From: Conexibacter sp. CPCC 206217
Lineage (GTDB): Bacteria > Actinomycetota > Thermoleophilia > Solirubrobacterales > Solirubrobacteraceae
Assembly (NCBI RefSeq): GCF_030646165.1
Contig: NZ_JAUTDO010000006.1
Span: 124,001-188,000 of the forward strand
Length of the DNA: 64,000 bases
Reading direction: 5' to 3'
Shown: positions 5,106 through 63,216 of the stretch, one piece after another
Numbering within the stretch: the first letter of the stretch is position 1
Layout: every line of letters begins with the position of its first letter
Made by a program: the position numbers and the translations under genes
The notes under the pieces: model-generated
Seen by the model: the letters and a program-made list of their open reading frames with translations, nothing else
Told to the model about the DNA's origin: nothing
Database searches by the model: none

Positions 5106-8100
5106 ATGATCGCCGTAACTGCCGCAGTTCCGCGACGCGCGAATCGGCGCGTCGTCCGCAACGCCGCGATTGGCCTCGCGACCGTCGCGACGACGCTTGC
5201 CGGCCTCGCCGCCTCGTCCGCGTCCGCGTCCGCCGCGCCGCTGACCGGTGTCGACCTGTCCACCTACGTGCGCGTAGGCCGCCACGACCTGCCGGAGCCG
5301 CTGCGCACCGCCGCGCCCTTCGGCAGCCTGCTGGCGCAGGAGGCCTCCGGGGTCACCTACGACTGGGACACCGACACGCTGTTCGTCGTCGGCGACGGCG
5401 GCACCTCGGTCGTGCAGGTGAGAAAGGACGGGACGTACGTCGACTCGATGACGCTGCCCTCCGGCGCCAGCGCGCAAGGCACGGAGTTCTACGACACCGA
5501 GGGCATCGCGTACGTCGGCGACGGCAGATTCGTGCTCGTCGAGGAGCGCTACCGGCAGGTCAACCTCTTCACCTACGTCGCGGGCGGCACGCTCGCGCGC
5601 GCCGACGTCAGAACGGTCAAGCTCGGCACGACGATCGACAACATCGGGATCGAGGGCATCACCAACGATCCGACCACGGGCGGGTTCATCGCCGTCAAGG
5701 AGAAGGACCCGAAGGGGATCTTCCAGACGGGGATCGACTTCACCACCGGGCTCGCCACCAACGGCTCGCCGACCACGGAGAACTCGGTCAACCTGTTCGA
5801 CCCGGCGCTGCTGCCCGGCCTGTCGGACTTCTCCGACGTCTACGCGCTCTCGAACGTGAGAACGCTGAGCGGGCCTGACAGCAGCCACCTGCTGATGATC
5901 AGCCAGGAGTCCGGCAAGGTCGTCAACGTCGACCGCTCCGGCAACGTCTCCAGCACGCTGACGCTGACCGATCCCGGCAGCCCGCTGTCGATCCCGGACC
6001 AGACGCACGAAGGCGTCACGATGGATCCGGACGGCAACATCTACACCGTCAACGAGCAGGGCGGCGGCGACAACTCGCACCCGCAGCTGTGGGTCTTCGC
6101 GCCGTCGAGCGCGCCCAACGCGGCCCCGACCGCGGTGACGCTCGCCAACAAGGTCGACACGCTCGCCGAGAACACCAGCACGGTCGGCCGCCTCAAGGTC
6201 GCCGACGTGAACGTCGAGGACGACGGCCTCGGCACCAACAACCTCACGCTCACGGGCCCGGACGCGTCCGCGTTCGAGGTCGACAGCACGGGCCTCTACA
6301 TCAAGGCCGGCACGACGCTCGACTACGAGACGAAGAGCAGCTACAGAGTCAGCGTCGTCGTCGACGACCCGAACGTCGGCACGACCCCTGACGCGACGAG
6401 CGACGAGTACACGCTGACGCTCACCGACATCGTCGACGAGACGCCGGTCACGCCGTCGGTGATCGTCTCCGAGGTGACGCCCTGGGGCAGCGGCGACTCC
6501 TCCTACGCGGCCGACTGGATCGAGCTGACGAACACCGGCTCCAGCGCCGTCGACCTGACCGGCTGGAAGATCGACGACTCCTCCAACTCGTTCTCCTCCG
6601 CCGTCGCGCTGACCGGCGTCAACAGCCTCGCGGCGGGCGAGTCCGCGGTCTTCCTCGAGGGCGACGCGACGACGATCAGCAGATTCAAGCTGTCGTGGTT
6701 CGGCGCGAGCGCGCCGAGCGGCCTCAAGGTTGGCACCTACAGCGGCTCCGGCATCGGCCTCAGCACCGACGGTGACGAGGTCAACGTCTTCAACGCGACC
6801 GGCACCCCGATCACGGGCGTCAGATTCGGCGTCCCGACGGTCGGCAAGACGTTCGACAACAGCGAGGGCATCGGCAGCACGATTCACCCGCTGCCGGCGA
6901 TCTCCAGACTGAGCGTGGCCGGCGTCAACGGCGCCTTCGTCGCGGAGGGCCAGACCGGCTCGCCGGGGACGATCGCCTCCGAGCCGACGACGCCGCCGGT
7001 GACCGTCTCCGAGGTCGCGCCGTGGGGCAGCGACGCGCCGTACGGAGCGGACTGGATCGAGCTGACGAACAACGGCACCAGCGCGGTCGACCTGACGGGC
7101 TGGAAGATCGACGACAGCAGCAACGACTTCCCCGCCTCCGTCGCGCTGACCGGCGTGAGCAGCCTCGCGGCGGGCGAGTCGGCCGTCTTCCTCGAGGGTG
7201 ACGCGACGAAGGCCGCGGCCTTCAAGACGTTCTGGTTCGGCTCCGACGTGCCGAGCGGCCTCCAGGTCGGCACCTACAGCGGTGGCGGCATCGGCCTCAG
7301 CGGCGGCGGCGACTCCGTCGTCGTCTTCGATCCGGCCGGGGACCGCGTGACCGCGGTCACCTTCGGCGCCTCGACGCCGAACGTCTCGTTCGACAACGCC
7401 GAGGGCGTCGGCGGCACGACGCAGCCGTTCCCGGCGATCACGAGACTGAGCGCGGCGGGCGTCAACGGCGCGTTCGTCGCCGGTGGCGCGACCGGTTCGC
7501 CCGGCACGATCGTGCAGTCGCCGGCGGAGCCCGAGCTGCCGCCGGTGACCGTCTCCGAGGTCGCGCCGTGGGGCAGCGACGAGTCGTACGGAGCGGATTG
7601 GATCGAGCTGACGAACACGGGTTCCAGCCCGGTCGATCTGACCGGCTGGAAGATCGACGACAACTCCAACCTGTTCAGCAGCGGCGTGGCGCTGACGGGC
7701 GTGAGCAGCCTCGCGGCCGGTCAGTCGGCCGTCTTCCTCGAGGGTGACGCGACGAAGGCCGCCGCGTTCAAGACGTTCTGGTTCGGCTCCGACGTGCCTG
7801 CCGGCCTGGCTGTCGGCACCTACAGCGGCAGCGGCATCGGCCTCGGCGGGGGCGGCGATTCCGTCAACGTCTTCAACGCGGCTGGCGACCGGGTCACGGG
7901 CGTCAGCTTCGGCGCTTCGACGCCGCGTGTCTCGTTCGACAACGCGGCGGGCGTCGGCGGCACGGAGTTGCCGCTGCCGGTGATCACGACAGTCAGCGTC
8001 GCGGGCGTCAACGGCGCGTTCGTGGCCGGTGGCGCGACGGGCTCTCCCGGCACGATCGTGCAACCGCTCGCGCCCGTCGCCACGTTCGACGTGCCGACGT

Positions 8101-8921
8101 TCGCGGATCAGGCGCAGGGAACGATCGGCGCCGGTCAGACGGTGACGGTCAGAAACACCGGTGACGCGCCGCTGAACGTGACGCGCGTGCGGATCAGAGA
8201 CGCCGACGGGCTCTCGAAGGGCGACTTCCTGCTCGCCGACGAGAGCTGCACCGACGGCGCGATCGCGCCGGATGCGACGTGCGAGGTGCTGGTGCGGTTC
8301 GCCCCGGGCCGCGCGAACGTCACCTCCCACGCGACGCTGGTGCTGAGCGACGACACGCTCGCGGGCACGAGCACGGTCGCGCTGAACGCCACCAGCACGG
8401 GCCTGCCCAGAGGCGACGACGGCGACGACGGACCGACAGGACCGACGGGCCCCACCGGCCCGACGGGTCCGACCGGTCCGATCGGACCCGCTGGCCCGAG
8501 CGGCGCGGACGGTGCCGCCGGTCCGAAGGGCGACACGGGCGCTGCGGGTCCCAAGGGCGACACCGGCGCGCCGGGTGCCAAGGGCGACGCCGGGGTGGGC
8601 ACGCCCGGGGCGAAGGGCGACACCGGCGAGCGGGGTCCCGCCGGCCCGAAGGGCGACAGAGGCGCGGCCGGCCGCGACGCGAAGGTCAGCTGCAGAATCG
8701 CGACGACGAGAGGCCGCCAGAAGGTGACGTGCTCGGTCACGCTCGTCAGAGGCGGCAGAGCGGCGAGACAGGCGAGAGGCGCGAGCGCGCGTCTGCTCCG
8801 CAACGGCCGCACCTACGCCAGCGGCCGTGTCGGCGCGCTGAAGACGACGCACCGCGTCAAGCGCGGCACGCGCTACACGCTGCGGGTGGCGGGGCTGTCG
8901 CTGAAGGTCCGGCTGGGCTAG
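5106..8921 (+). CDS. Giant secreted surface protein: SdiA-regulated-like propeller, cadherin-like, three lamin-tail domains, collagen repeats
   Basis: A 1271-residue exported protein. A signal peptide (residues 1 to about 44, cut near ASASAA) is followed by a beta-propeller of the SdiA-regulated/esterase-like phytase type (50-340; [34 protein letters not shown]), a cadherin-like domain (341-445), three near-identical lamin-tail domains starting at 450, 630 and 812 (SEVAPWGS...ADWIELTN...DLTGWKIDD), an Ig-like ASH/choice-of-anchor domain (992-1098), collagen Gly-X-Y triplets (1099-1190) and a basic 81-residue end domain (1191-1271). It has an AGGAG ribosome site. The last three domains recur in the rhamnosidase at 59.1-63.2 kb. 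The role is probably extracellular binding or hydrolysis at the cell surface; the enzymatic activity is unproven. About half its Arg codons are AGA. Confidence 0.9.
6454..8079 (+). repeat. Three tandem ~540-bp lamin-tail domain repeats
   Basis: Units begin near 6454, 6994 and 7540. The second and third share long identical stretches (for example the [17 protein letters not shown] coding segment), so duplication is recent or homogenised by gene conversion. Confidence 0.85.
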
Positions 8922-8931
8922 GTCGACGATC

Positions 8932-8961
8932 GCGGCGGCCGTGCCCTCGCGCGGCCGCCGC
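8932..8961. terminator. GC-rich hairpin after the surface-protein gene
   Basis: GCGGCGGCCG (8932-8941) pairs perfectly with CGGCCGCCGC (8952-8961) around a 10-nt loop, 10 bp past the stop codon. No T-run follows, as is common in such genomes. Confidence 0.65.
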
Positions 8962-9049
8962 ATCGCTTCACCCTCCGGCGGTCGCGCCCCGCGCGGCCGC
9001 CTCCGCGCCGGGCCCGGGTACCTTCAGTGCAACGACGACGGAGGTTCGC

Positions 9050-9547
9050 ATGACGACGAAGGCCGCCTTCAACGCAGAGGACTGGTCGGTGGTGACGACG
9101 GCGCCAGCGCTGACCGGACTGCTCGTGGTCGCCGCCGGGCGGGGCGGGACGATCAGAGAGACCGTCGCGATCTCGCGCGCGTACGCGGCGGCACGCGAGG
9201 CGCAGCCCGGCGAGTTGCTGCTCGAGGTGCTCGAGTCGCCGGCCTCGGCGGGACCGCCCGGCGGCGCACCGAGAGACGCGGAGGAGTTGCAGCGGATCGT
9301 GCTGAGGAGACTGCGCGAGGCGATCCGGATCCTCGACCTCGGCGCGACGCCGGAGGAGGTGGCGGAGTACAAGCGCTTCGTCTACGGCCTCGCGGAGGCG
9401 GTCGCCAACGCGCACAAGGAGGGCAGCTTCCTCGGCGTCGGCGGCACGCGCGTGAGCGAGAGAGAGCAGGCGATCCTCGATCGCGTCGCGGCGTTGTTCG
9501 ACGAACCGCCGACGGTGCCGGAGACGGAGGCAGCGAGCGAGTCGTAG
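9050..9547 (+). CDS. Hypothetical helical protein
   Basis: A 165-residue soluble, mostly helical protein that I do not recognise. It opens with FNAEDWSVVTTAPALTGLLVVAAG, has a central amphipathic stretch (EELQRIVLRRLREAIRILDL) and ends with a GSFLGVGG loop and an acidic tail. No signal peptide or membrane helix. GGAGG lies 6-10 nt before the ATG and TACCTT at 9019-9024 could be the promoter. The conserved-looking Gly-rich segment and clean codon use support a real gene. It is isolated between the surface-protein terminator and a convergent GNAT gene. Confidence 0.8.
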   Translation: MTTKAAFNAEDWSVVTTAPALTGLLVVAAGRGGTIRETVAISRAYAAAREAQPGELLLEVLESPASAGPPGGAPRDAEELQRIVLRRLREAIRILDLGATPEEVAEYKRFVYGLAEAVANAHKEGSFLGVGGTRVSEREQAILDRVAALFDEPPTVPETEAASES

Positions 9548-9559
9548 CGCCGCGGGCCG

Positions 9560-10096
9560 TCAGCCGCCGCGCGTGAGGAACGCCGCGACCGGGCGGTCGG
9601 CGTAAGCGAGGCGGGTCTCGCCGTCGTTGGCGTCGACGAACGCGCCGTAGTCGGTGAAGCCGAGGCGCTCGGCGACGCGGCGGGACGGGCCGTTGTGCTC
9701 GGCGACCCAGGCGATCACGGGGACGCCGGGGTCGATCTCGACGGCCGCGTCGCGGGCGGCGGTGGCCAGTTCGGTCGCGTAGCCGCGGCCCCACGCGCCG
9801 GTCGCGATCCGGTAGCTGAGGTTCCAGGCGCCGCTGGCATGGCGCTGCGCGCCGCCGATCCCGATCACGCGGCCGCCGTCGCGCTCGCGCACGGTCCAGT
9901 AGCTCATGCCCTCCGCCCAGCGCTCGGCCGCGCGTGCGACCCAGGCGCGCGTCTGCTCGACGTCGGCATGACACGCGGCCGGGTCGAACCACCACCCGTC
10001 CGGGTCGCTCATGATCGGATACAGCTCGTCGACGTCGGGCCCCGCTGCGGCCCGCAGATCGAGCCGCGCGGTGACGGCCGTACGCGGAAAGCTCAC
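9560..10096 (-). CDS. GNAT-family N-acetyltransferase (RimJ/RimL-like)
   Basis: A 178-residue GNAT domain. The acetyl-CoA pyrophosphate loop is IATGAWGRGYATELA, preceded by the VIGIGGAQRH beta strand and followed by VIAWVAEHNGPSRRVAERLGF, typical of the RimJ/RimL branch that acetylates protein N-termini or small amines. The start is GTG at 10094-10096 with TACCAT 7 nt upstream and no ribosome site. Stands alone; target unknown. Confidence 0.88.
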   Translation of the reverse strand: MSFPRTAVTARLDLRAAAGPDVDELYPIMSDPDGWWFDPAACHADVEQTRAWVARAAERWAEGMSYWTVRERDGGRVIGIGGAQRHASGAWNLSYRIATGAWGRGYATELATAARDAAVEIDPGVPVIAWVAEHNGPSRRVAERLGFTDYGAFVDANDGETRLAYADRPVAAFLTRGG

Positions 10097-10103
10097 GCGT
10101 CCG

Positions 10104-10109
10104 ATGGTA
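10104..10109 (-). promoter_or_regulatory. -10 element TACCAT of the GNAT gene (leaderless)
   Basis: TACCAT ends 7 nt before the GTG start on the minus strand. Confidence 0.45.
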
Positions 10110-10195
10110 ATGCGGGCAGCCGCGGCTCGGCGTCCGGCGCCGTCGTCCGCGACGCGCCGGCCGCAGCGACCGGCGTGCCGCGGAGCGCCGCTCGC

Positions 10196-12508
10196 TCAGA
10201 CGAGTCTGAGCGAGCGTCTGACGACGGAGCGGTTGCCCGCCGCGTCACGCGCCTCGATCGCGAGCGTCGCCGTCACGTCCTTGCCTCTGAGCGCGCGGAC
10301 CCGCAACTTGCCGGCCGCCGACAGTCTCACGGTGACGCTGTTGGCGCCGGGCTTCAGCGACTTCGTCGCTCTGCCGAGCGTCACGCGCTTCAGCTTGCGT
10401 CTCGCTCTTCTGCCTCTGCCGACCAGCGCCGGCACGCTCGCGCTGAGCGTGAACGTCGCGCGCGCGGCCTCGTCGGCGCTCAGCCCCAACGACAGCCCGC
10501 GGTTCAGCAGCTGTCTGTGCGTGCGCCGTCTCGGCAGCTCGATCGCGCTCAGGCGCGGCTTGGCGCCGTCTCTGGCGGCAGGCGGCGGTGCCGGTGTGTC
10601 GGTCGGCGGCGGCAGCTGTCTGTCGAGCGGCGGCGGGATGATGGTGCCCGGTCGTCTGTCATCGGGATCGGGATCGGGGTCGGGAGCCGCGGCCGGCGGC
10701 AGCTTCGTCACAGCGACGAGCGACGGCACCGGCGTCGAGGGATTCTGGCCCGTCGTCTTGTTGCCGTTGGGCCAGTACGAGGTGTAGGTCGAGAGGTCTC
10801 CGTAGACGCCTCTCGCGGCCGTTTCCTCGCCCGGGTGCTGAACGTTGACGAACAGCGTCTGCTCGTCGGGCGTGAAGTACGGGCCGGTTCCCTCCGACTC
10901 GGCCGGCATGTTCGCGAAGCGGAACGCGACACCGGCGTTCGGCCCCGAGCGCGGGATCATGAAGACCGCGTTGTTGAGGTGGTACTCGTACCACGTCTTT
11001 CTGCTGGCGGCACCGGACAGCGAACTGGACGAGATGTCGGTGACGACCCACAGGTTGCCGTGGTTGTCGAAGCAGAGGTTGTCGCAGCTGGAGAAGCCGC
11101 GCTCGCCAGCCGGCTTGTCGGTGCCGCGGTCGCCGCCGCCGGCGTAGTCGGTCCACGCGAATCTGTTGGACTCGCCGACCGCGGTCGGGTCGTCGCCGGC
11201 CTCGACGAGCTTGCGGATCGCGCCGTGCTGGTCCCTCACCGTCGAGTTGTTCGTGAACGAGACGTAGACGGTCCCGTCGCTGTCGACCTCGACGTCCTCG
11301 GGGCGGTTGGTCGCGAAGTGGGCGTTCCAGTCGCTGTCGCCGATCGCTCTTCTGATCAGGTTGTTGCAGTCCTCCAGTTCGCTGGTCAGCACCTCGCGCC
11401 AGAAGCCGGTCCCGCTCTGCGGCGTCGTCGGGATGCGATCGCCGTCGTTGGCGAACTCGCGGCGACCGTGGTCGAACGAGGCGATGTAGAGCGTTCCCTG
11501 CTCGAGGATCTTGAGGTTGTTGGAGCGCTGCCCCGGGAGGTACTGGCGTCTGGAGACGAACTTGTAGACGCCGGCGTTGGCGAGGTCGTCGCCCATGTAG
11601 AGCACGAAGGGCTTGCCGGCGACGGCGCGGAACGCGGTGTTCTCGTGCCGGAAGCGCCCGAGCGCCGTGTGCTTGCGCGGGGTCCACGACGGGTCGTAGG
11701 GATCGGTCTCGACGACCCAGCCGTACTTCGAGAGCTGGGTGTGGTCGTACTCGGCGTTCGTCGCGTCGGCGGCGAGGCCGTTCGCATTGGCCCAGCCGTA
11801 CGTGACGGCGTAGTCCTGGAAGTTCTCCTCGCACGACAGCGCCGTGCCCCACGGCGTGATCCCGCCGGAGCAGTTCGCCAGCGAGCCTCTGGCGCTCGTG
11901 CCGATTCTCGCGGCGCCGGCGAGCGGTCCGGTGAACTCGCACGCGGGGTCGGTGCCGGTGATGCGGCGGTTGTACGGCGACGGCGTGACGACCTGCCACA
12001 GCCCTTCGGCGTCCTTGCGCACGTGGAGGACCGAGTTGCCGACCGAGTACTGCTCCAGCGCGATCTGCGGCGCCGTCTTCGTCGCCCCGTCCGTGTTGCC
12101 GTGCTGGAAGAACGGCGCCGGGTACTCGTGGTTGACGAACAGCAGGCCCTCGTCCGGCTTGCCTTCGAGCGGGAAGAAGGCGAGGAAGTCGTTGTTGTAG
12201 CCGAACCTCAGCTGCGTTCCATCGCTGTTGTCGAAACGATCGTCGTAACCGATCACGACGTGCGCACGGTAGCCCGCGGGGACTTCGAACGCGTCCGCGC
12301 TGGATGCGGCGAGCGCTCTGAAGTCGGCGAACGGCGTGGGCGCGCCGGATGCCATCGCGTCGCTGTCGCCGAGCAGATCGGCGATGCCCGGCAGGTCGAA
12401 CAGCGCGCTCGCCGCGACCGTGCTGGCGCCGGCGGTCGCGACGCCGCGGATGAAGTGGCGGCGAGTCGTGCCTGCGGCCGCCTCGGAGGGGGTGGTGGGA
12501 TCAGCCAT
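10196..12508 (-). CDS. PhoX-family (DUF839) Tat-exported phosphatase with C-terminal Ig-like tail
   Basis: A 770-residue protein. The twin-arginine signal is TRRHFIRG (Arg16-Arg17) followed by a hydrophobic stretch, so it is exported folded. The DUF839 propeller (about 45-600) carries PhoX hallmarks: LLFVNHEYP, TPWGTALSCEENF, RPEDVEVDSDGTVYVSFTN and GFSSCDNLCFD. PhoX enzymes are calcium/iron phosphomonoesterases releasing phosphate outside the membrane. A Pro/Asp linker (PDPDPDPDD, then PPP runs) leads to an extra Arg-rich beta domain of about 125 residues ending VVRRSLRLV, not needed for catalysis and possibly for wall attachment. TACCGT 6 nt before the ATG fixes the start. Confidence 0.9.
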   Translation of the reverse strand: MADPTTPSEAAAGTTRRHFIRGVATAGASTVAASALFDLPGIADLLGDSDAMASGAPTPFADFRALAASSADAFEVPAGYRAHVVIGYDDRFDNSDGTQLRFGYNNDFLAFFPLEGKPDEGLLFVNHEYPAPFFQHGNTDGATKTAPQIALEQYSVGNSVLHVRKDAEGLWQVVTPSPYNRRITGTDPACEFTGPLAGAARIGTSARGSLANCSGGITPWGTALSCEENFQDYAVTYGWANANGLAADATNAEYDHTQLSKYGWVVETDPYDPSWTPRKHTALGRFRHENTAFRAVAGKPFVLYMGDDLANAGVYKFVSRRQYLPGQRSNNLKILEQGTLYIASFDHGRREFANDGDRIPTTPQSGTGFWREVLTSELEDCNNLIRRAIGDSDWNAHFATNRPEDVEVDSDGTVYVSFTNNSTVRDQHGAIRKLVEAGDDPTAVGESNRFAWTDYAGGGDRGTDKPAGERGFSSCDNLCFDNHGNLWVVTDISSSSLSGAASRKTWYEYHLNNAVFMIPRSGPNAGVAFRFANMPAESEGTGPYFTPDEQTLFVNVQHPGEETAARGVYGDLSTYTSYWPNGNKTTGQNPSTPVPSLVAVTKLPPAAAPDPDPDPDDRRPGTIIPPPLDRQLPPPTDTPAPPPAARDGAKPRLSAIELPRRRTHRQLLNRGLSLGLSADEAARATFTLSASVPALVGRGRRARRKLKRVTLGRATKSLKPGANSVTVRLSAAGKLRVRALRGKDVTATLAIEARDAAGNRSVVRRSLRLV

Positions 12509-12514
12509 GTGCGC

Positions 12515-12520
12515 ACGGTA
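12515..12520 (-). promoter_or_regulatory. -10 element TACCGT of the PhoX gene (leaderless)
   Basis: TACCGT ends exactly 6 nt before the ATG on the minus strand; no Shine-Dalgarno sequence is present. Confidence 0.5.
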
Positions 12521-12601
12521 TGGTTGCCGGTGATGGGACTCGTTATCGGAATGTGACGAGACTGGGTCCCTTTCTTCACACCGACCGCTTTCAGCCCGCC
12601 G

Positions 12602-13891
12602 ATGCCCCGCGCCGACAGACGAAGAGACGACGGCGCCCATGTCGAGGCATGGGCGGACGAGCGCGACGCGGCGGCGCGGGCGCGCGCCGAACGGCGGCGG
12701 GCGCGGCGGGGCGAGTCGCATGGCCTGCTCTCGACGCGCTGGGGACGCTGCCTGAGCGGCGCGGTGGCGCTGCTGGCGCTCGTGACGGCGGTCGGGCTGG
12801 TGGTGCTGTGGCCGCACGGCGACGGGCCGAGCGGCAGACAGCTCGCCTCCACGCCGACCGTCGAGGCGACGGTGACCGCGGTGAGAGAGCAGCAGTGCCC
12901 AGGGCCCTACAGGCAGACGTGCCGCTCGATCGTCGTGCGGATCGAGCAGGGGGCCGACCGCGGCAGACGCGAGCCGATCCTGCTCGGCCCGTCGAACGTC
13001 TCGCCGACGGTCGACGCCGGCGACGGCGTGCGGGTGCAGCGGGCGGCCGGCGATCCGAAGATGAACGTGCAGCGCTACGGCTTCACATCGGTCGACCGGC
13101 GCTCGACGATGGTGTGGCTCGCGCTCGTCTTCGTCGCGCTGGTCGTGCTGCTCGCGCGCTGGCGCGGCCTGCTGGCGCTCGCCGGCTTCGCGATCAGCCT
13201 GCTGCTGCTGACGCGCTTCCTCGTGCCGGCGGTCTCCGACGGCGGCCCGCCGTTCGCGGTCGCGATCGTCGGTGCGTTCGCGGTCATGTTCGTGACGGTC
13301 GGGCTCACGTACGGGATCGCCGCGCCGAGCCTGGCGGCGATCCTCGGGATCGCGACGAGCCTGCTGCTGGCCGGCGTGCTCGGCACGGTCGCGGTCCACG
13401 GCGCGCGCCTGGACGGCCGCGCGAGCGAGCTGTCGCAGGCGCTCGCGCAGCTCAACGCCGGCCTGTCGCTGCAGGGCGTCGTGCTCGCCGGGCTCGTCTT
13501 CGGCGCGCTCGGCGTGCTCGCCGACCAGGCCGTCACGCAGGCCTCGGCGGTGATGGCGCTGCGGCGCGCGAACCCGGCGCTGACGGTCCGCCAGGTCTAC
13601 AACGAGGCGCTCGCGGTCGGGCGCGACCACCTGATCGCGACGACCCACACGCTCGTGCTCGTCTACGTCGGCGCGACCTTCCCGCTGCTGCTGGTGCTCG
13701 ACGCGGGCGGCGTCGCCGGCGTCGACGCGCTCAACCGCGAGGACCTCGCCGAGCCGATCGTCGCGACGCTCGTCGGCGCGATCGCGCTGCTCGTCTCGGT
13801 CCCGCTGACGACCGCGCTGGCGGCGCTGATCGCGGCTCCGGCGCCCACGAGTGCGCTGCCGGCGTCTGCGCACGCGCATCACCACCACTGA
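12602..13891 (+). CDS. YibE/F-like multi-pass membrane protein
   Basis: A 429-residue protein. A charged cytoplasmic N-terminus (1-45) precedes one membrane helix, an extracytoplasmic domain with two Cys (QQCPGPYRQTCRS), then about seven more helices with the YibE/F-family segments (VFGALGVLADQAVTQASAV, YNEALAVGRDHLIATTHTLVLVYVGA, PLTTALAALIA). Function of the family is unknown; a transport role is often supposed. The C-terminus is naturally His-rich (AHAHHHH). Start is uncertain: no ribosome site or clear -10 precedes this ATG. It is divergent from the PhoX gene. Confidence 0.85.
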   Translation: MPRADRRRDDGAHVEAWADERDAAARARAERRRARRGESHGLLSTRWGRCLSGAVALLALVTAVGLVVLWPHGDGPSGRQLASTPTVEATVTAVREQQCPGPYRQTCRSIVVRIEQGADRGRREPILLGPSNVSPTVDAGDGVRVQRAAGDPKMNVQRYGFTSVDRRSTMVWLALVFVALVVLLARWRGLLALAGFAISLLLLTRFLVPAVSDGGPPFAVAIVGAFAVMFVTVGLTYGIAAPSLAAILGIATSLLLAGVLGTVAVHGARLDGRASELSQALAQLNAGLSLQGVVLAGLVFGALGVLADQAVTQASAVMALRRANPALTVRQVYNEALAVGRDHLIATTHTLVLVYVGATFPLLLVLDAGGVAGVDALNREDLAEPIVATLVGAIALLVSVPLTTALAALIAAPAPTSALPASAHAHHHH

Positions 13892-54479: not shown

Positions 54480-54485
54480 GCGCGC

Positions 54486-55655
54486 ATGACGGAGATCACC
54501 GAGGCGAGCGAGCAGGCGGCGCCCGACACCGCGCTGCGCGCCGACGTCGAGCAGCTGTCCGCGATGAGGCGCGACTCGGCTGGCGCCGGCGAGCGCGCCT
54601 CCGCCGCGTGGGTGGCGCAGCGGCTGCGCGGGGCCGGGGCGCAGGACGTGCGGATCGAGCCATTTCGCTACACCCCGACGTACACCCACGCCTACGCGCT
54701 GCATGCCGCTGCGATCGGCGCCGGCGCGGTGCTCGGCGGGCGTCGCGGCGGGGTGCTGGCGCTCGCCGCGCTCGCCTCCTACGAGCTGGACGTCAGCGGC
54801 CGCCTGCAGTGGCTGCGCCGCTGGCTGCCGCGGGGCGACGGCGCCAACGCGATCGGCCGGCTGCCGGCGCGCGGGCCCAAGCGCGCGACGCTCGTCGTCG
54901 TCGCCCACCACGACGCCGCGCACACCGGGCTGATCTGGAATCCGGCGCTGAGCGAGGGCGGCGCGGCGCTGCGGCTGCGGCGCCGGGCGATGGAGCCGAC
55001 CGGCTGGCCGTTCGCGCTGATGGCGCTCGCCGCCGCCAGCGACACCCGCGCTGGCCGCGTGCTCGGCGGGACGCTGGCCGCCACCGCGGTCGGGCTGATG
55101 GCGGACGTGAAGCGCTCGCCGACCGTTCCGGGCGCATCCGACAACGCGACCGGCGTCGCGGCGCTGCTGGCGCTCGCGGGACGGCTGTCGGCGGATCCGC
55201 CCGAGGGACTGGAGACGATCCTGCTCGCGCCCGGCTGCGAGGAGCCCGGGATGGGCGGGATGGCGGCCTTCCTCGCCGCGCACGGCGACGCGCTGGACCC
55301 CGCGACGACGTTCGTGCTCGGCCTCGACACGCTCGGCGCGGGTGAGCCGATCGTCGCGCGCGCCGAGGGCGTGCTGCTGCCGCACCGCTACGCCGCGCGC
55401 GACAACGACCTCGTCGACGCCGCCGCCCGCCGCGCCGGCCTGGAGCCGCCGCAGCGTTGGCGGATCGGCGCCTACACCGACCCGATCCTCGCCCGCTTCG
55501 CCGGCCTGCGCGCGGTCTCGCTGCTGTCGGTCGCTGCCGACGGCCGCTACAGCGACTACCACCTGCCGACCGACACCGCCGACCGCGTCGACTGGCGCTC
55601 GGTCGCCCGCTGCCTCGACCTGGCGGAGGCGACGGCGCGGGAACTCGTGGCCTAA
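54486..55655 (+). CDS. M28-family zinc peptidase
   Basis: A 389-residue protein with M28 metal ligands: VVAHHDAAHTG (His, Asp), GASDNATGVAALL (bridging Asp), GCEEPGMGG (catalytic Glu pair), LGLDTLGAG (Asp) and YSDYHLPTDTAD (His). A hydrophobic, possibly membrane-associated segment (about 75-100) is inserted before the catalytic core, but no signal peptide is seen. Likely an aminopeptidase-like enzyme. Its stop overlaps that of the convergent amine oxidase by 3 bp. Confidence 0.88.
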   Translation: MTEITEASEQAAPDTALRADVEQLSAMRRDSAGAGERASAAWVAQRLRGAGAQDVRIEPFRYTPTYTHAYALHAAAIGAGAVLGGRRGGVLALAALASYELDVSGRLQWLRRWLPRGDGANAIGRLPARGPKRATLVVVAHHDAAHTGLIWNPALSEGGAALRLRRRAMEPTGWPFALMALAAASDTRAGRVLGGTLAATAVGLMADVKRSPTVPGASDNATGVAALLALAGRLSADPPEGLETILLAPGCEEPGMGGMAAFLAAHGDALDPATTFVLGLDTLGAGEPIVARAEGVLLPHRYAARDNDLVDAAARRAGLEPPQRWRIGAYTDPILARFAGLRAVSLLSVAADGRYSDYHLPTDTADRVDWRSVARCLDLAEATARELVA

Positions 55656-57025: not shown

Positions 57026-57033
57026 CGTGCCGC

Positions 57034-57039
57034 AGCATA
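57034..57039 (-). promoter_or_regulatory. -10 element TATGCT of the amine oxidase gene
   Basis: TATGCT ends 8 nt before the ATG on the minus strand. Confidence 0.4.
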
Positions 57040-57076
57040 GTGCGCCAATGCGCCACGAACCGCCGTCCGACTGCTG

Positions 57077-58378
57077 TCAGAGGGCGTCCGCCGCCGGCTC
57101 GACCGCCTGCGCCCGCACCAGCGGCAGCTCGTGCGCCGCGCCCGGACGCGTCGCGAGCACCTGGAAGATGCTGATGTCGTCGTCCTCGAACGCCAGTGCG
57201 GAGCCGAGCATGTAGAGCCGCCAGACGCGCTCGCGCTCCTCGCCGACCTCCGCGACGATCCCGTCGCGCTCGGTGGTGAGGTTCGCCAGCCAGCGGCGCA
57301 GCGTCAGCGCGTAGTGCTCGCGCAGCGACTCGACGTCGCGCGGCTCCAGGCCGGCGGACTGCAGCGCGCCGATCACGACGCCGAGCTGCGGCAGCTCGCC
57401 GTCGGGGAAGACGTAGCGCTGGATCAGCGACTTCTCGCCGGCGGGCTGGGAGAACAGCTGCGCGATCCCGTGGTTCAGCAGCAGGCCGCCGGGCCGCAGC
57501 AGGCGCGCGAGCGTCGCGGCGTAGGTGTCGAGCTGCGCGAGCCCGACGTGCTCGACCATGCCGACGCTGGCGATCTTGTCGTACGGCCCGTCGTCGACCT
57601 CGCGGTAGTCGGCGACGCGGATCTCGATGCGGTCCTGCAGGCCGGCGTCGCGCACGCGCTCGCGCGCCAGCGCCGCCTGCTCCTCCGACAGCGTGATGCC
57701 GACGCCGCGCACGCCGTGGCGCTCGGCCGCGTGCAGCAGCAGCGAGCCCCAGCCGCAGCCGACGTCCAGCAGCCGCTCGCCCGGCTGCAGCCGCAGCTTG
57801 CGGCAGATCAGCTCCAGCTTGCGCTCCTGCGCCGCTTCGAGCGAGTCGTCGGGCGACTCGAAGTACGCGCACGAGTAGACGAGCGTGGGGCCGAGCAGGC
57901 GGCGGTAGAAGGCGTTGGAGACGTCGTAGTGGTGCTGGACGACGGTGCGGTCGCGCCGCAGCGAGTGCCGGTGACCCTCCGCGCGCAGCTCGGACGCGGG
58001 CGCTCGCGGCGGCCGCAGCGCGCCGCGCCCGCCCAGCAGCAGCGCGCCGGCCAGCCCCAGCGCGACGTCGCGGTGCGACATCTCGACGCCGCGAAAGCGC
58101 CCGCGCAGCGCCAGCAGCGCCTCGATGTCGCCGTCCAGGTCGAGGTCGCCGAGCACGAACGCGCGCACGAGCCCGAGCTGGTTGGGCTCGTGCAGCAGGT
58201 GCGCGATCGCGCGCCGCCGCACCCGCACGGTGCCGATCGACGGCGTCTCGCCCGCGGGCAGCACGGAGCCGTCCCAGAACGCGACCGCGAACGGGAGCCT
58301 TCTCATGCGTCCACCGGCGAGGCGAGCCAACACCGCCGAGGAGATCCGTGCAGCTGCAACCATCTCTTCGACCAGCAT
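57077..58378 (-). CDS. Cyclopropane-fatty-acid synthase-like methyltransferase
   Basis: A 433-residue CFAS-family enzyme that methylates or cyclopropanates unsaturated membrane lipids with SAM. Motifs: VVQHHYDVSNAFYRRLLGP, LVYSCAYFE, the SAM loop LLDVGCGWGSLLLHAAE, VGITLSEEQ, SVGMVEHVG and IQRYVFPDGELP. An N-terminal 120-residue extension (WDGSVLPAG..., DGDIEALLALRG) is the usual lipid-binding part. Starts at 58378 and 58402 are both possible; no ribosome site decides. Divergent from PAP2. Confidence 0.92.
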   Translation of the reverse strand: MLVEEMVAAARISSAVLARLAGGRMRRLPFAVAFWDGSVLPAGETPSIGTVRVRRRAIAHLLHEPNQLGLVRAFVLGDLDLDGDIEALLALRGRFRGVEMSHRDVALGLAGALLLGGRGALRPPRAPASELRAEGHRHSLRRDRTVVQHHYDVSNAFYRRLLGPTLVYSCAYFESPDDSLEAAQERKLELICRKLRLQPGERLLDVGCGWGSLLLHAAERHGVRGVGITLSEEQAALARERVRDAGLQDRIEIRVADYREVDDGPYDKIASVGMVEHVGLAQLDTYAATLARLLRPGGLLLNHGIAQLFSQPAGEKSLIQRYVFPDGELPQLGVVIGALQSAGLEPRDVESLREHYALTLRRWLANLTTERDGIVAEVGEERERVWRLYMLGSALAFEDDDISIFQVLATRPGAAHELPLVRAQAVEPAADAL

Positions 58379-58408
58379 AGTGCGCGGGGCTCGTAGGATC
58401 ATTCGCCG

Positions 58409-58984
58409 ATGGCTTCCGACTCCAAGGCCGGCTGGCTCCAGGACGCCGAGCGGATCGACGTCGCGCTGTACGCGGCGATCGCGCAGACGCCCACGCCGAC
58501 GCTCGACCGCGCGATGGCGCGGCTGTCAGACGCGGCCGACTACTCGCGTCTGTCGCTCACGGCGTCGGCGCTGCTCGCGACCGCGGGCGGTGCGCGCGGC
58601 CGTCGCGCCGCCGGCCGCGGCCTCGCGTCGATCGGCGTCACGGCGACGATCGTCAACGTCGTCGCGAAGCCGCTCGGCGGCCGCAGGCGCCCCGATCGCG
58701 TGGCGCGGCAGGTCCCCGTCGCGCGGCACGTGCGGATGCCGTCGTCGACCTCGTTCCCGTCCGGCCACTCCGCCGCCGCGTTCGCGTTCGCGACCGGCGT
58801 CGGCCACGTGCTCCCGCCCGCTGCGATCCCGTTGCGCGGACTCGCCGCGCTGGTCGCCTACTCGCGCGTGCACACAGGCGTCCACTATCCCGGCGACGTC
58901 GTCGCGGGCGCGCTGATCGGGACGGTGCTCGCCCAGCTCACCGCACACGCGCTCGACCGTCGCAGCGCGGCAAAGCACCAGTAA
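58409..58984 (+). CDS. PAP2-family phosphatase
   Basis: A 191-residue membrane phosphatase with the three PAP2 motifs: KPLGGRRRPD (KxxxxxxRP), SFPSGHSAAAFA (PSGH) and YSRVHTGVHYPGDVVAGAL (SRxxxxxHxxxD). Such enzymes dephosphorylate lipid phosphates such as phosphatidic acid or undecaprenyl pyrophosphate. TAGGAT at 58394-58399 lies 9 nt upstream. Its place beside a lipid-modifying CFAS fits membrane-lipid metabolism. Confidence 0.92.
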   Translation: MASDSKAGWLQDAERIDVALYAAIAQTPTPTLDRAMARLSDAADYSRLSLTASALLATAGGARGRRAAGRGLASIGVTATIVNVVAKPLGGRRRPDRVARQVPVARHVRMPSSTSFPSGHSAAAFAFATGVGHVLPPAAIPLRGLAALVAYSRVHTGVHYPGDVVAGALIGTVLAQLTAHALDRRSAAKHQ

Positions 58985-59136
58985 ATCGCTCATCGCTCTA
59001 ACAGTTCCGTCCTGATCGAAATGGAACGTTAGTGGTGGAAATCGACCGAATCTGACCGTAAGCTCTCGGCAAGATTGTTGGATCGGCGTCGCCAGCGCGT
59101 TCGCGTGGCGACCCGGCCGTGAGGAGAGGAGCAGGT

Positions 59137-62100
59137 TTGGTCGTCCCCCGTTTGCTGCGCGGCGCTGCCGTGGCAGCGACCGTTGTCGCGATCGTCGCGT
59201 TGCCCGTGGCCGCATCCGGCGAGGACCCCCCGTCCGCGCCGCCGCCGACGGCGCTGAACGTCGAGCTGCAGCCGAAGCCGATGGTGATCGAGGACCTGAC
59301 CGGGCCGAAGCTGGCCTGGCACGTCCGCTCCGACGCGGCCGACGTGGTCCAGCGCGCCTACCAGGTGCGCGTCGCCACGACGGCGGCCGACCTGGCTGAC
59401 GGCGGCACGCCGCTGTGGGACTCCGGCCGCGTCGAGTCGGCCGACTCGACCGGCGTCGCCTACGCCGGTCCCGCGCTCAGACCCGGCATGCGCTACCGCT
59501 GGTCGGTCCGCACCTGGACCGCCGCGCGCGGCGCCGACGCCGCCGAGCAGGGCACCCCCAGCGGCTGGTCCGCGCCGGCCCAGTTCGGCACCGGCCTGAC
59601 GAGCTGGAGCGCCGCGCCGATCTGGCTCGGCAGCAGCGACAGAAGCGCGAGCTGGAGCGACTACACCGTCAGCGCGAAGGTCAACATCAACGCCGTCGCC
59701 GGCGGCTTGCAACTGCGCGCGCGCGACGACCGCAACAGCCTCATGTGGCAGTTCCGCGCGGACAACACGATCGTCCCGCACACGCAGACCAACGGCACCT
59801 ACGCGACCAGCGGCGCCGCGATCAGAATGCCGGCTCCCATCAACCTCGGCGACGGGCAGACGCACACCGTTGCGGTCAACGCCACCGGCAGCACGTTCAC
59901 GACCACGGTCGACGGCACGCAGGTCGACCAGCGCACGATCAGCGGCTTCGCCAACGGCACGGTCGGCTTCCGCAACGGCCGCACCGAGATCGCCAGATGG
60001 GACGACCTGACGGTCACCGCGACCAACGGCGACGTGCTCTACGGCAACGACTTCAGCGGCTCCGCGGGCGACATCACCTGCGGCACCGTCAACGGCGGCG
60101 TGCTGACCGTCGGCTTCTCCGGCATCTGCATCCGCGGCGCCGCGGGCGACTGGGCGTTCATGCGCAGCGACCTGCAGCTCGCCGACAAGCCGATCGACTC
60201 CGCGACGCTGTACGCGACCGCGACCTCGCGCGACGACATCCGCCAGTTCGTCTACCGCGCCTGGATCAACGGCAGGCTCGTCGGCCTCGGCCCGACGGTC
60301 GCGCCCAGAAGCGGCACGACCGCCTACGCCGGCTACGACGTCACCGGCCTGCTGAGACAGGGCGCCGAGAACGTGATCGCCGCGCAGGCGTACACGAGAA
60401 AGGAGCAGCGCTTCCTCGGCCAGCTCGACGTCACCTACGCCGACGGCACGACGGCGACGTTCGGCACCGGTGCCGCCTCGTGGAGAGGCTGGGCCGGCTA
60501 CAGAGCGTTCAACGGCGGCGGCTCGATCGGCACGAGCTTCTTCGCCGCGCCGGCCGAGAACATCGACGCGCGCAGCTTCCCGTTCGGCTTCGAGGACGTC
60601 GGCTTCGACGACAGCACGTGGGAGCCGGTCGTCGAGAAGGATCCGATCAGCGGCCTCGTCGGCGCGCAGACGGTCAACCCGCAGCAGTACGACGAGCCGG
60701 TCGCGAGACTGACGACGCTCGAGGACGGCCGCGTCGTCGTCGACTTCGGCCGCGCGTGGATCGGCGGCATCAAGCTGCACATCCCCGACGGCACCGCCGG
60801 CGACCAGGTCGACGTCAGACTCGGCGAGGAGCTGGGCGGCGACGGCACGGTGCGCTGGCAGATGCGCACCGGCAACAACTACCGCGACACGTTCACCCTG
60901 CGCGACGGCGATCAGACGCTGCAGCAGTGGGGCTACCGCGTCTTCCGCTACGTCGAGCTGACCGGGCTGCCGGAGGGCGTGACCGCGGACGACATCGCAG
61001 CGACCTCGCTGCGCACGCCGTTCGACCGCGGCGAGTCGAGCTTCGAGTCCGACGACCCGCTGTTGGACGAGGTCTGGCAGTTCACGAAGAACTCGATCGA
61101 GGGCCTCGACTTCGACGCCTTCATGGACTCCGCGACGCGCGAGCGCAGCGCCGAGTACGGCGGCGACACCTACATCAACCTGATGGCCGAGCACGTACTC
61201 AGCTCCGACCGCGCGCTCGCGCGCTGGTCGACCGAGTACACGGCGTTCCGTCCGTCCTGGCCGAGCGAGTGGCGCTACGCGACGATCCTCGCCGCCTACG
61301 AGGACTGGATGCACACGGGCGACCTGACGTCGCTGCGGCGCCAGTACGACACGCTCAGAGGGTTCCTGCCGCTCAAATACATCACCGCCGACGGCCTCGT
61401 GAAGAAGCCGACGTCGGTGAGCGGCGTCGACGACCTCGTCGACTGGCCCGCGGGCGAGCGCGACGGCTACGTGATGACGCAGACCGACACCGTCATCAAC
61501 GCGTGGGCGTACAGAGCGTTCACCGACATGGCGCAGATCGCGGGCGCGCTCGGCGGCGGGGACGACGCGGCGACCTTCGCCGACGCGGCCGCGCGCCTGA
61601 AGCAGGGGATCAACGCGAGACTGTGGGACGACACGAGAGGCGCCTACCGCGACGGCCTCACCGACGACGGCAACCCGATCGACCACTTCGCCGTCCATGC
61701 GACGACGTTCGCGCTCGCGTTCGGCCTCGCCGACGCCGACAGAGCCGCGCGCGGCGCCGCCTACCTCGACAGCCGCGGGATGCAGTGCAGCGTCTTCTGC
61801 GCGCAGTTCGTGCTGCAGGGGCTGACGAACGCGGGCCGTGCGGACGCGTCGATCAGAATGATGACCTCGACCGCGCAGCGCTCCTGGCTGCACATGATCG
61901 ACCTCGGCGCGGGCGCCGTGATGGAGGCGTGGGATCCGGCGCTGAAGCCGAACACGTCGTTCTCGCACCCGTGGGCCTCGAGCCCCGTCGTGAACGTGAC
62001 GAGAGGCATCTTCGGGCTCGAGCCGACGGCGCCGGGCTGGGCGCGCTTCAAGGTCGCGCCGCAGCCGGGCACGCTCGGGCACGCGAGCCTGACGACGCCG

Positions 62101-63216
62101 ACGGTGCGCGGTCCGGTCACGGCCTCGTTCGACAGGAGCGCTGCGGACGGGCTCGTGCTGCAGCTGACCTCGCCGGCCAACACGGTCGCCGAGGTGACGC
62201 TGCCGCGCGTGGTCGGCGGCAGAGACGAGCTGCTGGTCGACGGCGTCGCGGTCGCGACCGAGGTCGACGGTGACCAGTTGCACGCAGACGTCGGATCCGG
62301 CAGCCACACGATCAGCGTGCCGCAGCCGGTCGACACCGCGCCGCACAGCGAATTCACCGTGCCGGCGTTCCCGGACCAGGCGGTCGGCACGACCGGGCCG
62401 GTGCAGCGGGTGACGGTGCAGAACAGCGGCGTCTCGCCGCTGACGGTCACGCGCGTGCGGATCAAGGACGCCGACGGTCTCTCGACCGGCGACTTCCTGC
62501 TCGCCGACGAGACCTGCGGCGACGGCCCGGTCGCACCGCGCGACACCTGCGACGTGATGATCCGCTTCGCACCGGGTCGCTCCGACGTGACCTCGCACGC
62601 GACGCTGACGCTGAGCGACAACACGCCGTCGGGGTCGAGCAGCGTCGTGCTGAGCGCGACCAGCACAGGGCTGCCGCAGGGGCCCAGAGGAGATGCCGGC
62701 GAGAGAGGCGAGACCGGCGACAGCGGGGCTGACGGGGCGAGAGGGGACACGGGTCCGACAGGGCCGGCGGGTCCCGCGGGTCCGACCGGCGCGGTCGGCC
62801 CTGCGGGTCCGAACGGCGACATCGGTCCGGCAGGTCCGATCGGCCCGGTGGGCGCTGGCGGCTCGAAGGGCGATGCCGGCGCCAAGGGCGACAAGGGCGA
62901 TACCGGCGCCAAGGGCGACCGGGGTGCCACGGGTCCCAAGGGCGACAGAGGCGCGCCCGGGCGCGACGCGAAGGTCACGTGCCGGATCATGGCGACGAGA
63001 GGCCGCCAGAAGGTCTCGTGCGCGGTCACGCTCGCGAGATCCGGCGGCAAGTCGGCGAGAAAGGCGCGCGCGACGACCAGCGCACGCCTCGTCCGCAACG
63101 GCCGCACCTACGCCAGCGGCCGCCTCGGCGCCCTGCGCACGACGCACCGCGTCACGCGCGGCGCCCGCTACACGCTGCGCGTCGGCACGCTCACGCTGCC
63201 GGTGCGACTGCGGTAG
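59137..63216 (+). CDS. Giant secreted GH78-like alpha-L-rhamnosidase with collagen-repeat C-terminal cassette
   Basis: A 1359-residue exported enzyme. After a signal peptide (1 to about 28) come an N-terminal rhamnosidase Fn3-like domain (KLAWHVRSD, MRYRWSVRTW), a LamG-like insert (about 165-310), the Bac_rhamnosid_N region (AWINGRLVGLGP), a beta-sandwich (VVVDFGRAWIGGIKLHIPDG), and the (alpha/alpha)6 core with DSATRERSAEYGGD near residue 663 and AVMEAWDP near 929 as catalytic candidates. It should release rhamnose from glycans. From 1071 an Ig-like domain, collagen triplets (1182-1276) and a basic end domain (1277-1359) repeat those of the 5.1-8.9 kb protein. TTG at 59137 is preferred over GTG 59119 because GAGGAGAGGAG lies 5 nt before it. 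Confidence 0.9.
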   Translation: MVVPRLLRGAAVAATVVAIVALPVAASGEDPPSAPPPTALNVELQPKPMVIEDLTGPKLAWHVRSDAADVVQRAYQVRVATTAADLADGGTPLWDSGRVESADSTGVAYAGPALRPGMRYRWSVRTWTAARGADAAEQGTPSGWSAPAQFGTGLTSWSAAPIWLGSSDRSASWSDYTVSAKVNINAVAGGLQLRARDDRNSLMWQFRADNTIVPHTQTNGTYATSGAAIRMPAPINLGDGQTHTVAVNATGSTFTTTVDGTQVDQRTISGFANGTVGFRNGRTEIARWDDLTVTATNGDVLYGNDFSGSAGDITCGTVNGGVLTVGFSGICIRGAAGDWAFMRSDLQLADKPIDSATLYATATSRDDIRQFVYRAWINGRLVGLGPTVAPRSGTTAYAGYDVTGLLRQGAENVIAAQAYTRKEQRFLGQLDVTYADGTTATFGTGAASWRGWAGYRAFNGGGSIGTSFFAAPAENIDARSFPFGFEDVGFDDSTWEPVVEKDPISGLVGAQTVNPQQYDEPVARLTTLEDGRVVVDFGRAWIGGIKLHIPDGTAGDQVDVRLGEELGGDGTVRWQMRTGNNYRDTFTLRDGDQTLQQWGYRVFRYVELTGLPEGVTADDIAATSLRTPFDRGESSFESDDPLLDEVWQFTKNSIEGLDFDAFMDSATRERSAEYGGDTYINLMAEHVLSSDRALARWSTEYTAFRPSWPSEWRYATILAAYEDWMHTGDLTSLRRQYDTLRGFLPLKYITADGLVKKPTSVSGVDDLVDWPAGERDGYVMTQTDTVINAWAYRAFTDMAQIAGALGGGDDAATFADAAARLKQGINARLWDDTRGAYRDGLTDDGNPIDHFAVHATTFALAFGLADADRAARGAAYLDSRGMQCSVFCAQFVLQGLTNAGRADASIRMMTSTAQRSWLHMIDLGAGAVMEAWDPALKPNTSFSHPWASSPVVNVTRGIFGLEPTAPGWARFKVAPQPGTLGHASLTTPTVRGPVTASFDRSAADGLVLQLTSPANTVAEVTLPRVVGGRDELLVDGVAVATEVDGDQLHADVGSGSHTISVPQPVDTAPHSEFTVPAFPDQAVGTTGPVQRVTVQNSGVSPLTVTRVRIKDADGLSTGDFLLADETCGDGPVAPRDTCDVMIRFAPGRSDVTSHATLTLSDNTPSGSSSVVLSATSTGLPQGPRGDAGERGETGDSGADGARGDTGPTGPAGPAGPTGAVGPAGPNGDIGPAGPIGPVGAGGSKGDAGAKGDKGDTGAKGDRGATGPKGDRGAPGRDAKVTCRIMATRGRQKVSCAVTLARSGGKSARKARATTSARLVRNGRTYASGRLGALRTTHRVTRGARYTLRVGTLTLPVRLR

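What the first reader, a model, noticed from the sequence alone, without database searches (positions are those of the whole stretch)
8080..63213. Shared C-terminal cassette on two unrelated giant exported proteins
Seen directly: residues 992-1271 of the 5.1-8.9 kb protein and 1071-1359 of the rhamnosidase carry the same three-part end. It consists of an Ig-like domain ([33 protein letters not shown] shared), a block of Gly-X-Y collagen triplets rich in GPKGD/GAKGD, and an 81-83 residue basic domain beginning DAKV(S/T)CRI and sharing [20 protein letters not shown](K/R)TTHRV and RG(T/A)RYTLRV. The catalytic parts have nothing in common. This looks like a reusable stalk-plus-anchor for surface display, with the terminal domain possibly an undescribed attachment module (no LPXTG, no membrane anchor).
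Basis: partly seen in the sequence, partly recalled or inferred. Interest (0 to 1): 0.72.

Follow-up and report, generated by a model that had tools for sequence, protein, structure and literature searches.

The report
Collagen stalks with +20-charge tails
In the soil bacterium Conexibacter many exported enzymes end in a collagen rod followed by a small, strongly positively charged domain that probably ties them to the negatively charged cell surface, and quite different domains seem to serve the same purpose as long as the charge is about +20.

Summary
In detail: the C-terminal ~290-300 residues of the two giant proteins are 65% identical (E 2e-104), the rest unrelated. The 81-83 residue terminal domain matches no Pfam or NCBIfam model. 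It is a real family: 17 copies in this Conexibacter genome, all after collagen, 0-12 residues from the stop codon, on phosphatases, GDPD, rhamnosidase and others. Of 43 strong hits in related genomes, 42 end within 8 residues of the stop and 41 follow collagen. Profile hits occurred only in its own class. AlphaFold gives seven beta strands. The new point is charge. All 17 domains carry net +19 to +23, with less variation in K+R count than independent positions would give. The genome's collagen proteins split into 28 with tails of +18 to +24 and 12 with -10 to +1; a second species repeats this. Eleven of the 28 have tails the profile misses, including cationic NEW3 domains and a Lys/Ala-rich tail. 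Some exported enzymes without collagen, among them a PhoX in this window, carry similar tails on proline-rich linkers. Best reading: interchangeable polycationic C-terminal modules that tether exported enzymes to an anionic envelope polymer, with collagen as stalk. Attachment itself is untested.

The parts
5106..8921 (+). P0001: exported SdiA-regulated/phytase-like protein with 3 lamin-tail domains, choice-of-anchor-D-like Ig, collagen and cationic C-terminal domain
8079..8405 (+). Ig-like (choice-of-anchor D / HYDIN-like) domain of P0001, about residues 992-1100
   Evidence: NCBIfam NF012200 E 7.9e-10, 39.2 bits (cut-off 45); PF22544 20.0 bits (cut-off 25.5)
8412..8675 (+). collagen stalk of P0001, about 29 Gly-X-Y triplets (about 25 nm if triple-helical)
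   Evidence: PF01391 40.2 bits over cut-off; tract measured
8676..8918 (+). cationic C-terminal domain of P0001 (81 aa, net about +20 to +21)
10196..13888 (-). PhoX alkaline phosphatase frame (true start well inside it, Tat-like RRHFIRG signal by eye) with proline-rich linker and another +19 C-terminal tail (last 85 aa): similar architecture without collagen
   Evidence: PF05787 E 6.4e-100; tail charge and signal
59119..63216 (+). P0002: exported GH78 alpha-L-rhamnosidase with Ig, collagen and cationic C-terminal domain
62329..62673 (+). Ig-like (choice-of-anchor D-like) domain of P0002, about residues 1071-1185
   Evidence: NCBIfam NF012200 E 4.4e-9, 36.8 bits (cut-off 45)
62680..62964 (+). 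collagen stalk of P0002, about 32 triplets (about 27 nm if triple-helical)
   Evidence: PF01391 50.4 bits; tract measured
62965..63213 (+). cationic C-terminal domain of P0002 (83 aa, net about +20 to +21), the sequence modelled by AlphaFold2

Best explanation
The terminal domain is one of several interchangeable polycationic C-terminal modules with which Conexibacter and relatives keep exported enzymes at the cell surface. The protein is exported through an N-terminal signal (predicted). Collagen triplets, or in other proteins a proline-rich linker, form a stalk; the own collagen tracts are 54-120 residues, roughly 15-34 nm (tract length measured; triple helix inferred from Gly-X-Y and the excess of K/R-G-D/E pairs). 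The C-terminal ~60-125 residues carry about +20 net charge and bind non-covalently, by charge, to an anionic envelope polymer (inferred). If the collagen trimerises, three modules act together at about +60 and give strong avidity (inferred). Selection acts on total charge more than on fold or on the position of each basic residue (supported by the statistics). The enzyme head is held outside the wall so that phosphate or sugar is released beside the cell (inferred).
For: Position: 17 of 17 own copies directly follow collagen and end 0-12 residues before the stop; relatives with E <= 1e-9: 42 of 43 end within 8 aa of the stop and 41 of 43 follow collagen. Export: signal-like start in 34 of 39 frames against 3 of 37 controls. 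Charge: 17 own domains +19 to +23; 69 domains 18.6 +/- 2.4; K 7.8% and D+E 1.4% in the domain against 1.9% and 10.3% in the N-terminal parts of relatives; K+R count variance 0.26 (own) and 0.47 (all) of the column-shuffled value in well-aligned columns, while hydrophobic, S+T and A counts give 0.88-1.36 for all 69. Bimodality: own collagen genes 28 at +18 to +24 and 12 at -10 to +1; G003 18 at +16 to +24 and 16 at -5 to +4. Interchangeability: four own NEW3-type tails (hhalign against the family 2.1%; PF10633 in 6 of 6 members), and the tails of L028, L030, L039 and L052 (0.03-0.9%) show no relation to the family; GDPD occurs with collagen + domain (L038), collagen + other tail (L052) and proline linker + domain (L143). 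Tails >= +15 in unselected 400-kb samples: exported-like 4 of 26 and 3 of 28, cytosol-like 0 of 121 and 1 of 128. Real stalk: K/R-G-D/E pairs 74 against 33 +/- 3.6 shuffled in own tracts and 101 against 39 +/- 4.6 in relatives.
Against: No localisation, binding or structural experiment exists. The anionic partner is unknown: the genome has two LytR-CpsA-Psr proteins but no CDP-glycerol glycerophosphotransferase match. Many collagen proteins lack a cationic tail (12 own, 16 in G003). Most exported-like genes also lack one (22 of 26 and 25 of 28), and a few TM-containing frames have >= +15 (3 of 55 and 1 of 39). In the variance test the count of Gly is also reduced (0.62 over 69), and VILMF in the 17 own ones (0.47), so charge is the strongest but not the only conserved count. 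Three of the eleven other tails may be distant relatives of the family (L041 81%, L040 14%, L037 7%; a five-member group with L041 and L040 41% over 22 columns). The gap between the two charge classes depends on measuring the whole part after the collagen: with a fixed last-85 window L025 reads +10. The signal-peptide and gene-finding rules were simple ones of my own. The HMM used to collect relatives may favour basic sequences.
Confidence: 0.58

Rival explanations
1. The terminal domain is mainly a trimerisation and registration module that nucleates folding of the collagen from its C-terminus, like the C-propeptide of animal collagens or the trimeric C-terminal domain of Lcl.
For: It abuts collagen in 17 of 17 own and 41 of 43 strong relative copies; the part N-terminal to the collagen is an enzyme or Ig-like domain with no obvious trimer (inference); the Lcl CTD is a stable trimer and its authors suggest it may start folding of the collagen region (PMC11162425, passages).
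Against: The domain also occurs after proline-rich linkers without collagen (L120 and L143). Other +20 tails, including a Lys/Ala-rich one, take its place after collagen. A charge of +20 per chain should oppose trimer packing (inference). A second role beside tethering is not excluded.
Confidence: 0.2
2. The cationic module binds acidic matter outside the cell (pectin or other acidic polysaccharide, extracellular DNA, clay), so that enzymes are held on substrate or in the biofilm matrix instead of on the cell envelope.
For: Glycosidase cargo such as GH78; charge-driven GAG binding by the Lcl CTD (PMC11162425, passages); soil lifestyle of the genus (recalled).
Against: The commonest cargo domains are phosphate-related (Metallophos 14, NAGPA 7, alkaline phosphatase 5, GDPD 4, phytase-like 4 of 55, some in one protein) and have no common polymer substrate. 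The stalk between enzyme and module fits display from a wall better than substrate binding (inference). Not decisive.
Confidence: 0.17
3. The charged C-termini are a by-product of high-GC composition or of loosely constrained C-terminal ends and have no shared function.
For: Arg-rich shadow frames are common in this GC-rich genome; some unselected proteins have >= +15 ends.
Against: Lys, which has AT-rich codons, is fourfold enriched and acidic residues are almost absent; bimodality in two species; basic ends nearly absent from cytosol-like genes (1 of 249 over both samples); reduced variance of total charge.
Confidence: 0.05

Closest known systems
Legionella collagen-like adhesin Lcl, C-terminal domain (PMC11162425, passages seen, part of the abstract among them)
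   Same: Collagen-like stalk followed by a C-terminal domain with a positively charged surface that binds anionic polysaccharide
   Different: Lcl-CTD is a C-type-lectin-like trimer with DUF1566, no disulfide, and the protein is held to the bacterium by its N-terminus; here an ~80-aa all-beta domain with two invariant Cys, on enzymes, with C-terminal tethering proposed; no Pfam DUF1566 match
Lactobacillus SlpA teichoic-acid-binding domain and Listeria GW modules (PMC11181022 and PMC4010754, passages seen)
   Same: Non-covalent C-terminal modules that hold exported proteins on wall or lipoteichoic acid; SlpA with a strongly positive surface
   Different: Different families (no Pfam or NCBIfam match to either at E <= 1); those are dedicated folds, whereas here different folds share a charge
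Scl1/Scl2 LPXTG-anchored streptococcal collagen-like proteins (NF038329, NF038330; review PMC8968730, passages seen)
   Same: N-terminal functional head, collagen rod, C-terminal attachment
   Different: Wall anchoring by an LPXTG-type signal there; no LPXTG or hydrophobic segment here; matches cover the collagen tract, with at most a few residues to a short stretch beyond, and lie far below the cut-offs
Choice-of-anchor D domain, NCBIfam NF012200
   Same: The Ig-like part of the cassette resembles it (E 8e-10 and 4e-9; 22 of 55 relatives)
   Different: Below the curated cut-off in both window proteins; that the name refers to neighbouring sorting signals of several kinds is recalled
Type IX secretion C-terminal domain (RgpB CTD)

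Membership tests
Bacterial collagen-like proteins (PF01391) | Gly-X-Y tract over the family cut-off | tested here: met
   40.2 and 50.4 bits against 27.2
Bacterial collagen-like proteins (PF01391) | stable triple helix | not testable with these tools
   indirect only: K/R-G-D/E pairs 74 against 33 +/- 3.6 shuffled
LPXTG / sortase substrates | C-terminal LPXTG-like motif, hydrophobic segment, basic tail | tested here: not met
   read from the sequence of both C-termini; the genome has one sortase
Choice-of-anchor D (NF012200) | score over the curated cut-off | tested here: inconclusive
   39.2 and 36.8 bits against cut-off 45, E 8e-10 and 4e-9
Lcl C-terminal domain | DUF1566 / C-type-lectin-like fold | tested here: not met
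   no DUF1566 match at E <= 1; model has seven strands and no helix
Lcl C-terminal domain | cationic surface binding anionic glycans | not testable with these tools
   net about +21 here; binding needs an experiment
GW modules / SlpA teichoic-acid-binding domain | match to the family model | tested here: not met
   no such match to either terminal domain in Pfam or NCBIfam at E <= 1
T9SS C-terminal domain | CTD fold | tested here: inconclusive
T9SS C-terminal domain | T9SS machinery in the genome | not tested
   not searched
NEW3 / NPCBM_assoc (PF10633), for the second tail type only | score over the cut-off | tested here: met
   29.5 bits against 24.4 in the first member; 6 of 6 members match at E <= 1, scores of the other five not shown

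The most novel reading that the evidence does not exclude
A charge-coded surface-retention system: exported enzymes are kept at the cell surface by any C-terminal module, whatever its fold, with net charge near +20. Domain families unrelated to each other (the undescribed two-cysteine domain, NEW3 domains, a Lys/Ala-rich tail and others) have converged on that value, and stalk (collagen or proline-rich) and tail are mixed freely across phosphatases, glycosidases, proteases and other cargo.
Probability: 0.42. Interest if true: 0.8.

Novelty: new variant of a known kind. Interest (0 to 1): 0.62.

Why it matters
How exported enzymes of Thermoleophilia, soil bacteria for the most part (recalled), stay with the cell appears undescribed in what I could search. 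If right, it means sorting by net charge instead of by motif or fold, a type of signal that motif and family searches miss. It would also give a natural fusion tag for surface display and a natural use of bacterial collagen as an enzyme stalk. It makes a direct test possible: transplant any +20 tail and see whether it holds the cargo.

Tried and rejected

Sortase anchoring: rejected for lack of LPXTG and hydrophobic segment, although one sortase gene exists. Classical teichoic acid as partner: no PF04464 match, so the polymer is left open. Collagen as an obligatory partner: rejected (L120, L143 and tails on proline linkers).

Early tables were replaced: charges; signal rule (45 of 56 relatives). 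In one search the collagen genes were scored on a fixed last-85 window: 24 of 28 at +17 to +25, and -2, -1, 0 and +10; the +10 is L025, whose whole 437-residue part after the collagen is neutral. In one search four of 44 frames were set aside as shadow or non-collagen frames (L030+ 134 aa, L030+ 187 aa, L037- 251 aa, L045- 66 aa); none had a tail above +5. One of the 12 counted as neutral (L047) has only a 16-residue tail, and some tail lengths there still hold a few collagen triplets. In one search the 42 rows are 18 basic, 16 neutral, 3 frames open at a locus edge, 1 shadow frame at +13 and 4 repeats; 5 of the 18 and 3 of the 16 rest on collagen matches below the Pfam cut-off. The shorter neutral list typed (14) is wrong and not used. 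(collagen in three more genomes) was fetched but not analysed. One search also holds weak hits that are unlikely members (L169, L173) and an odd one with non-coding-looking sequence before it (L127). Papers: searches; no listed title or abstract start described the cassette, and most subscription journals and all preprints are not held.
Full report
Where it is. The window is 64 kb of contig C25 of a 5.94-Mb genome. The genus is Conexibacter (Thermoleophilia, Solirubrobacterales): the same-genus genome G005 has three contigs of exactly the lengths of named Conexibacter sp. CPCC 205762 records that hold the same loci. G003, a single 6,359,369-base contig, is from memory the size of C. woesei.

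The observation. The two proteins are as described, and their shared part is the C-terminal ~290-300 residues only, 65% identical with E 2e-104. The Ig-like part belongs near the choice-of-anchor D / HYDIN group and the rod is ordinary collagen repeat. The terminal 81-83 residues match nothing in Pfam (best E 0.14) or NCBIfam.

A family of its own. A profile of 16 own-genome copies finds 17 copies at E <= 1.6e-17 in this genome, and three weak hits (best E 1.5e-4) below that. All 17 follow collagen and their profile match ends 0-12 residues before the stop. Among 151 searched genomes (own included) 36 have a hit at E <= 1e-3. I fetched all 73 hits outside the own genome. At E <= 1e-9, 42 of 43 end within 8 residues of the stop and 41 of 43 have collagen just upstream; at E <= 1e-3 it is 59 and 62 of 73. 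Exceptions include L120 and L143, where the domain follows a proline-rich stretch. In a draw of 399 genomes of the class 42 have it, 34 of them in the same family; in a draw of 396 genomes of the phylum only 3 have it, all of the family and one being the own genome (both calls scored at most 14 candidates a genome, and give 14 instead of 17 for the own genome, so they are lower bounds). A pattern scan of genome contigs gave three Conexibacter loci and a 21-residue match in a contig labelled Acidobacteria. The 69-sequence alignment has two invariant cysteines and an invariant glycine, and AlphaFold2 gives seven strands at pLDDT 84. No solved structure stands out.

Cargo. In this genome: alkaline phosphatase, GDPD, metallophosphoesterase with a sub-threshold purple-acid-phosphatase N domain, NAGPA plus metallophosphoesterase, exo/endo-phosphatase family, RCC1, LRR, beta-helix, DUF5107, several without a recognised cargo domain, and the two window proteins. 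In 55 of the 73 relatives (those ending within 8 residues of the stop with more than 150 residues before the hit): Metallophos 14, NAGPA 7, alkaline phosphatase 5, phytase-like 4, GDPD 4; collagen in 44, choice-of-anchor D in 22. Phosphate-related domains are the commonest.

Charge is the constant. Net charge is +19 to +23 in all 17 own domains and 18.6 +/- 2.4 in 69. If basic residues varied independently by column the own-genome variance of K+R should be about 6.7 in well-aligned columns; it is 1.7. For all 69 it is 3.2 against 6.7. Hydrophobic, S+T and A counts do not show this over the 69 (0.88-1.36 of shuffled), but Gly does to a lesser degree (0.62), and hydrophobics do in the 17 own ones (0.47). 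Lys is 7.8% in the domain and 1.9% in the N-terminal parts, Asp+Glu 1.4% and 10.3%, so this is not a GC effect alone.

Different folds, same charge. I took all 61 collagen matches of the genome; they fall in 44 frames. Four are shadow or non-collagen frames. Of the other 40, 28 have a tail of +18 to +24 after the last collagen run and 12 have -10 to +1. Of the 28, 17 have the domain and 11 do not. Of those 11, four are NEW3-type (PF10633 matches all 6 members of an alignment that adds two from G003; hhalign probability against the family 2.1%; AlphaFold2 model mostly strand); L028 (61 residues, Lys/Ala-rich, +23), L030, L039 and L052 give 0.03-0.9%; L037, L040 and L041 give 7%, 14% and 81%, so L041 and perhaps its neighbours may be distant relatives. 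In G003, 18 of 34 closed collagen frames have +16 to +24 and 16 have -5 to +4 (8 of the 34 are below the Pfam cut-off). So the same split holds in a second species.

Beyond collagen. In the window and 30 own loci, 137 non-collagen genes (by a rule of ten unbroken triplets) have a mean C-terminal charge of -0.1; eight reach +15. All eight look exported by eye, and seven have a proline- or TP-rich linker; the eighth is a short-collagen gene already counted. One is a PhoX phosphatase in this very window, with a Tat-like signal and a +19 tail. Those loci were chosen for collagen, so I drew 400 kb each from two genomes without regard to it (about 7% and 6% of them): tails of +15 or more occur in 4 of 26 and 3 of 28 exported-like genes and in 0 of 121 and 1 of 128 cytosol-like genes, the one exception having a signal-like start. 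TM-containing frames: 3 of 55 and 1 of 39.

Mechanism. Shown: architecture, position, charge constancy, exchange of tails, and restriction of such tails in the samples to exported-like or TM-containing genes with one exception. Inferred: that the tails bind something anionic, that this is in the envelope, and that collagen forms a trimeric stalk. The stalk tracts are 54-120 residues, 15-34 nm as a triple helix, and hold 74 K/R-G-D/E neighbours against 33 +/- 3.6 shuffled (relatives 101 against 39 +/- 4.6), a pattern known (recalled) to stabilise collagen without hydroxyproline. GDPD with collagen + domain (L038), collagen + another tail (L052) and proline linker + domain (L143, another genus) suggests that stalk and tail are exchangeable parts. 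The partner is unknown: two LytR-CpsA-Psr proteins suggest a wall glycopolymer, while the teichoic acid polymerase family PF04464 has no match.

Against known systems. It would work like SlpA or GW modules (non-covalent C-terminal wall binding) and resembles Lcl (collagen then cationic domain), but fails the membership tests for the GW/SlpA models, DUF1566 and LPXTG. Hence: a new domain family, used in a new variant of a known kind of surface attachment, with the charge rule as the surprising part.

Limits. Gene calling and signal prediction were simple rules of mine; the whole genome was not available as a file; no experiment bears on localisation. Of the papers, I saw passages of PMC11162425, PMC8968730, PMC11181022, PMC4010754 and PMC10454023, and only listings of the rest.

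Noticed in passing
window 10196-13888 (-): PhoX alkaline phosphatase with proline-rich linker and another +19 tail lies between the two giant genes; its real start is far inside the listed frame.
   Followed up: yes
L032:1-1024 (contig C13 start) and L033:1-1030 (contig C5 start): Two contigs begin inside very similar Ig-collagen-CTD ends, so repeated copies of the cassette may have broken the assembly here.
   Followed up: no
L034:4800-10529 (-): Two adjacent large genes (one with DUF5107) both end in collagen plus the domain, each with another Ig-like-looking stretch in place of choice-of-anchor D.
   Followed up: partly
L028:10921-14183 (-): A collagen protein ends in a 61-residue Lys/Ala-rich, histone-H1-like tail of net +23 and lies next to a second PhoX gene whose last 85 residues carry +19.
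   Followed up: partly
L026, L029, L031, L042 (2219-2995), L044, L048, L050, L054: A second class of collagen proteins, most of them small, has neutral or slightly acidic C-terminal parts of about 80-170 residues; their function is unknown.
   Followed up: no
window 57077-58402 (-): Cyclopropane-fatty-acid synthase family (CMAS) gene a short way upstream of the rhamnosidase, on the other strand.
   Followed up: no
L195:6001-6063: A 21-residue match to the domain core in a contig labelled Acidobacteria MAG; could be chance, binning error or transfer.
   Followed up: no
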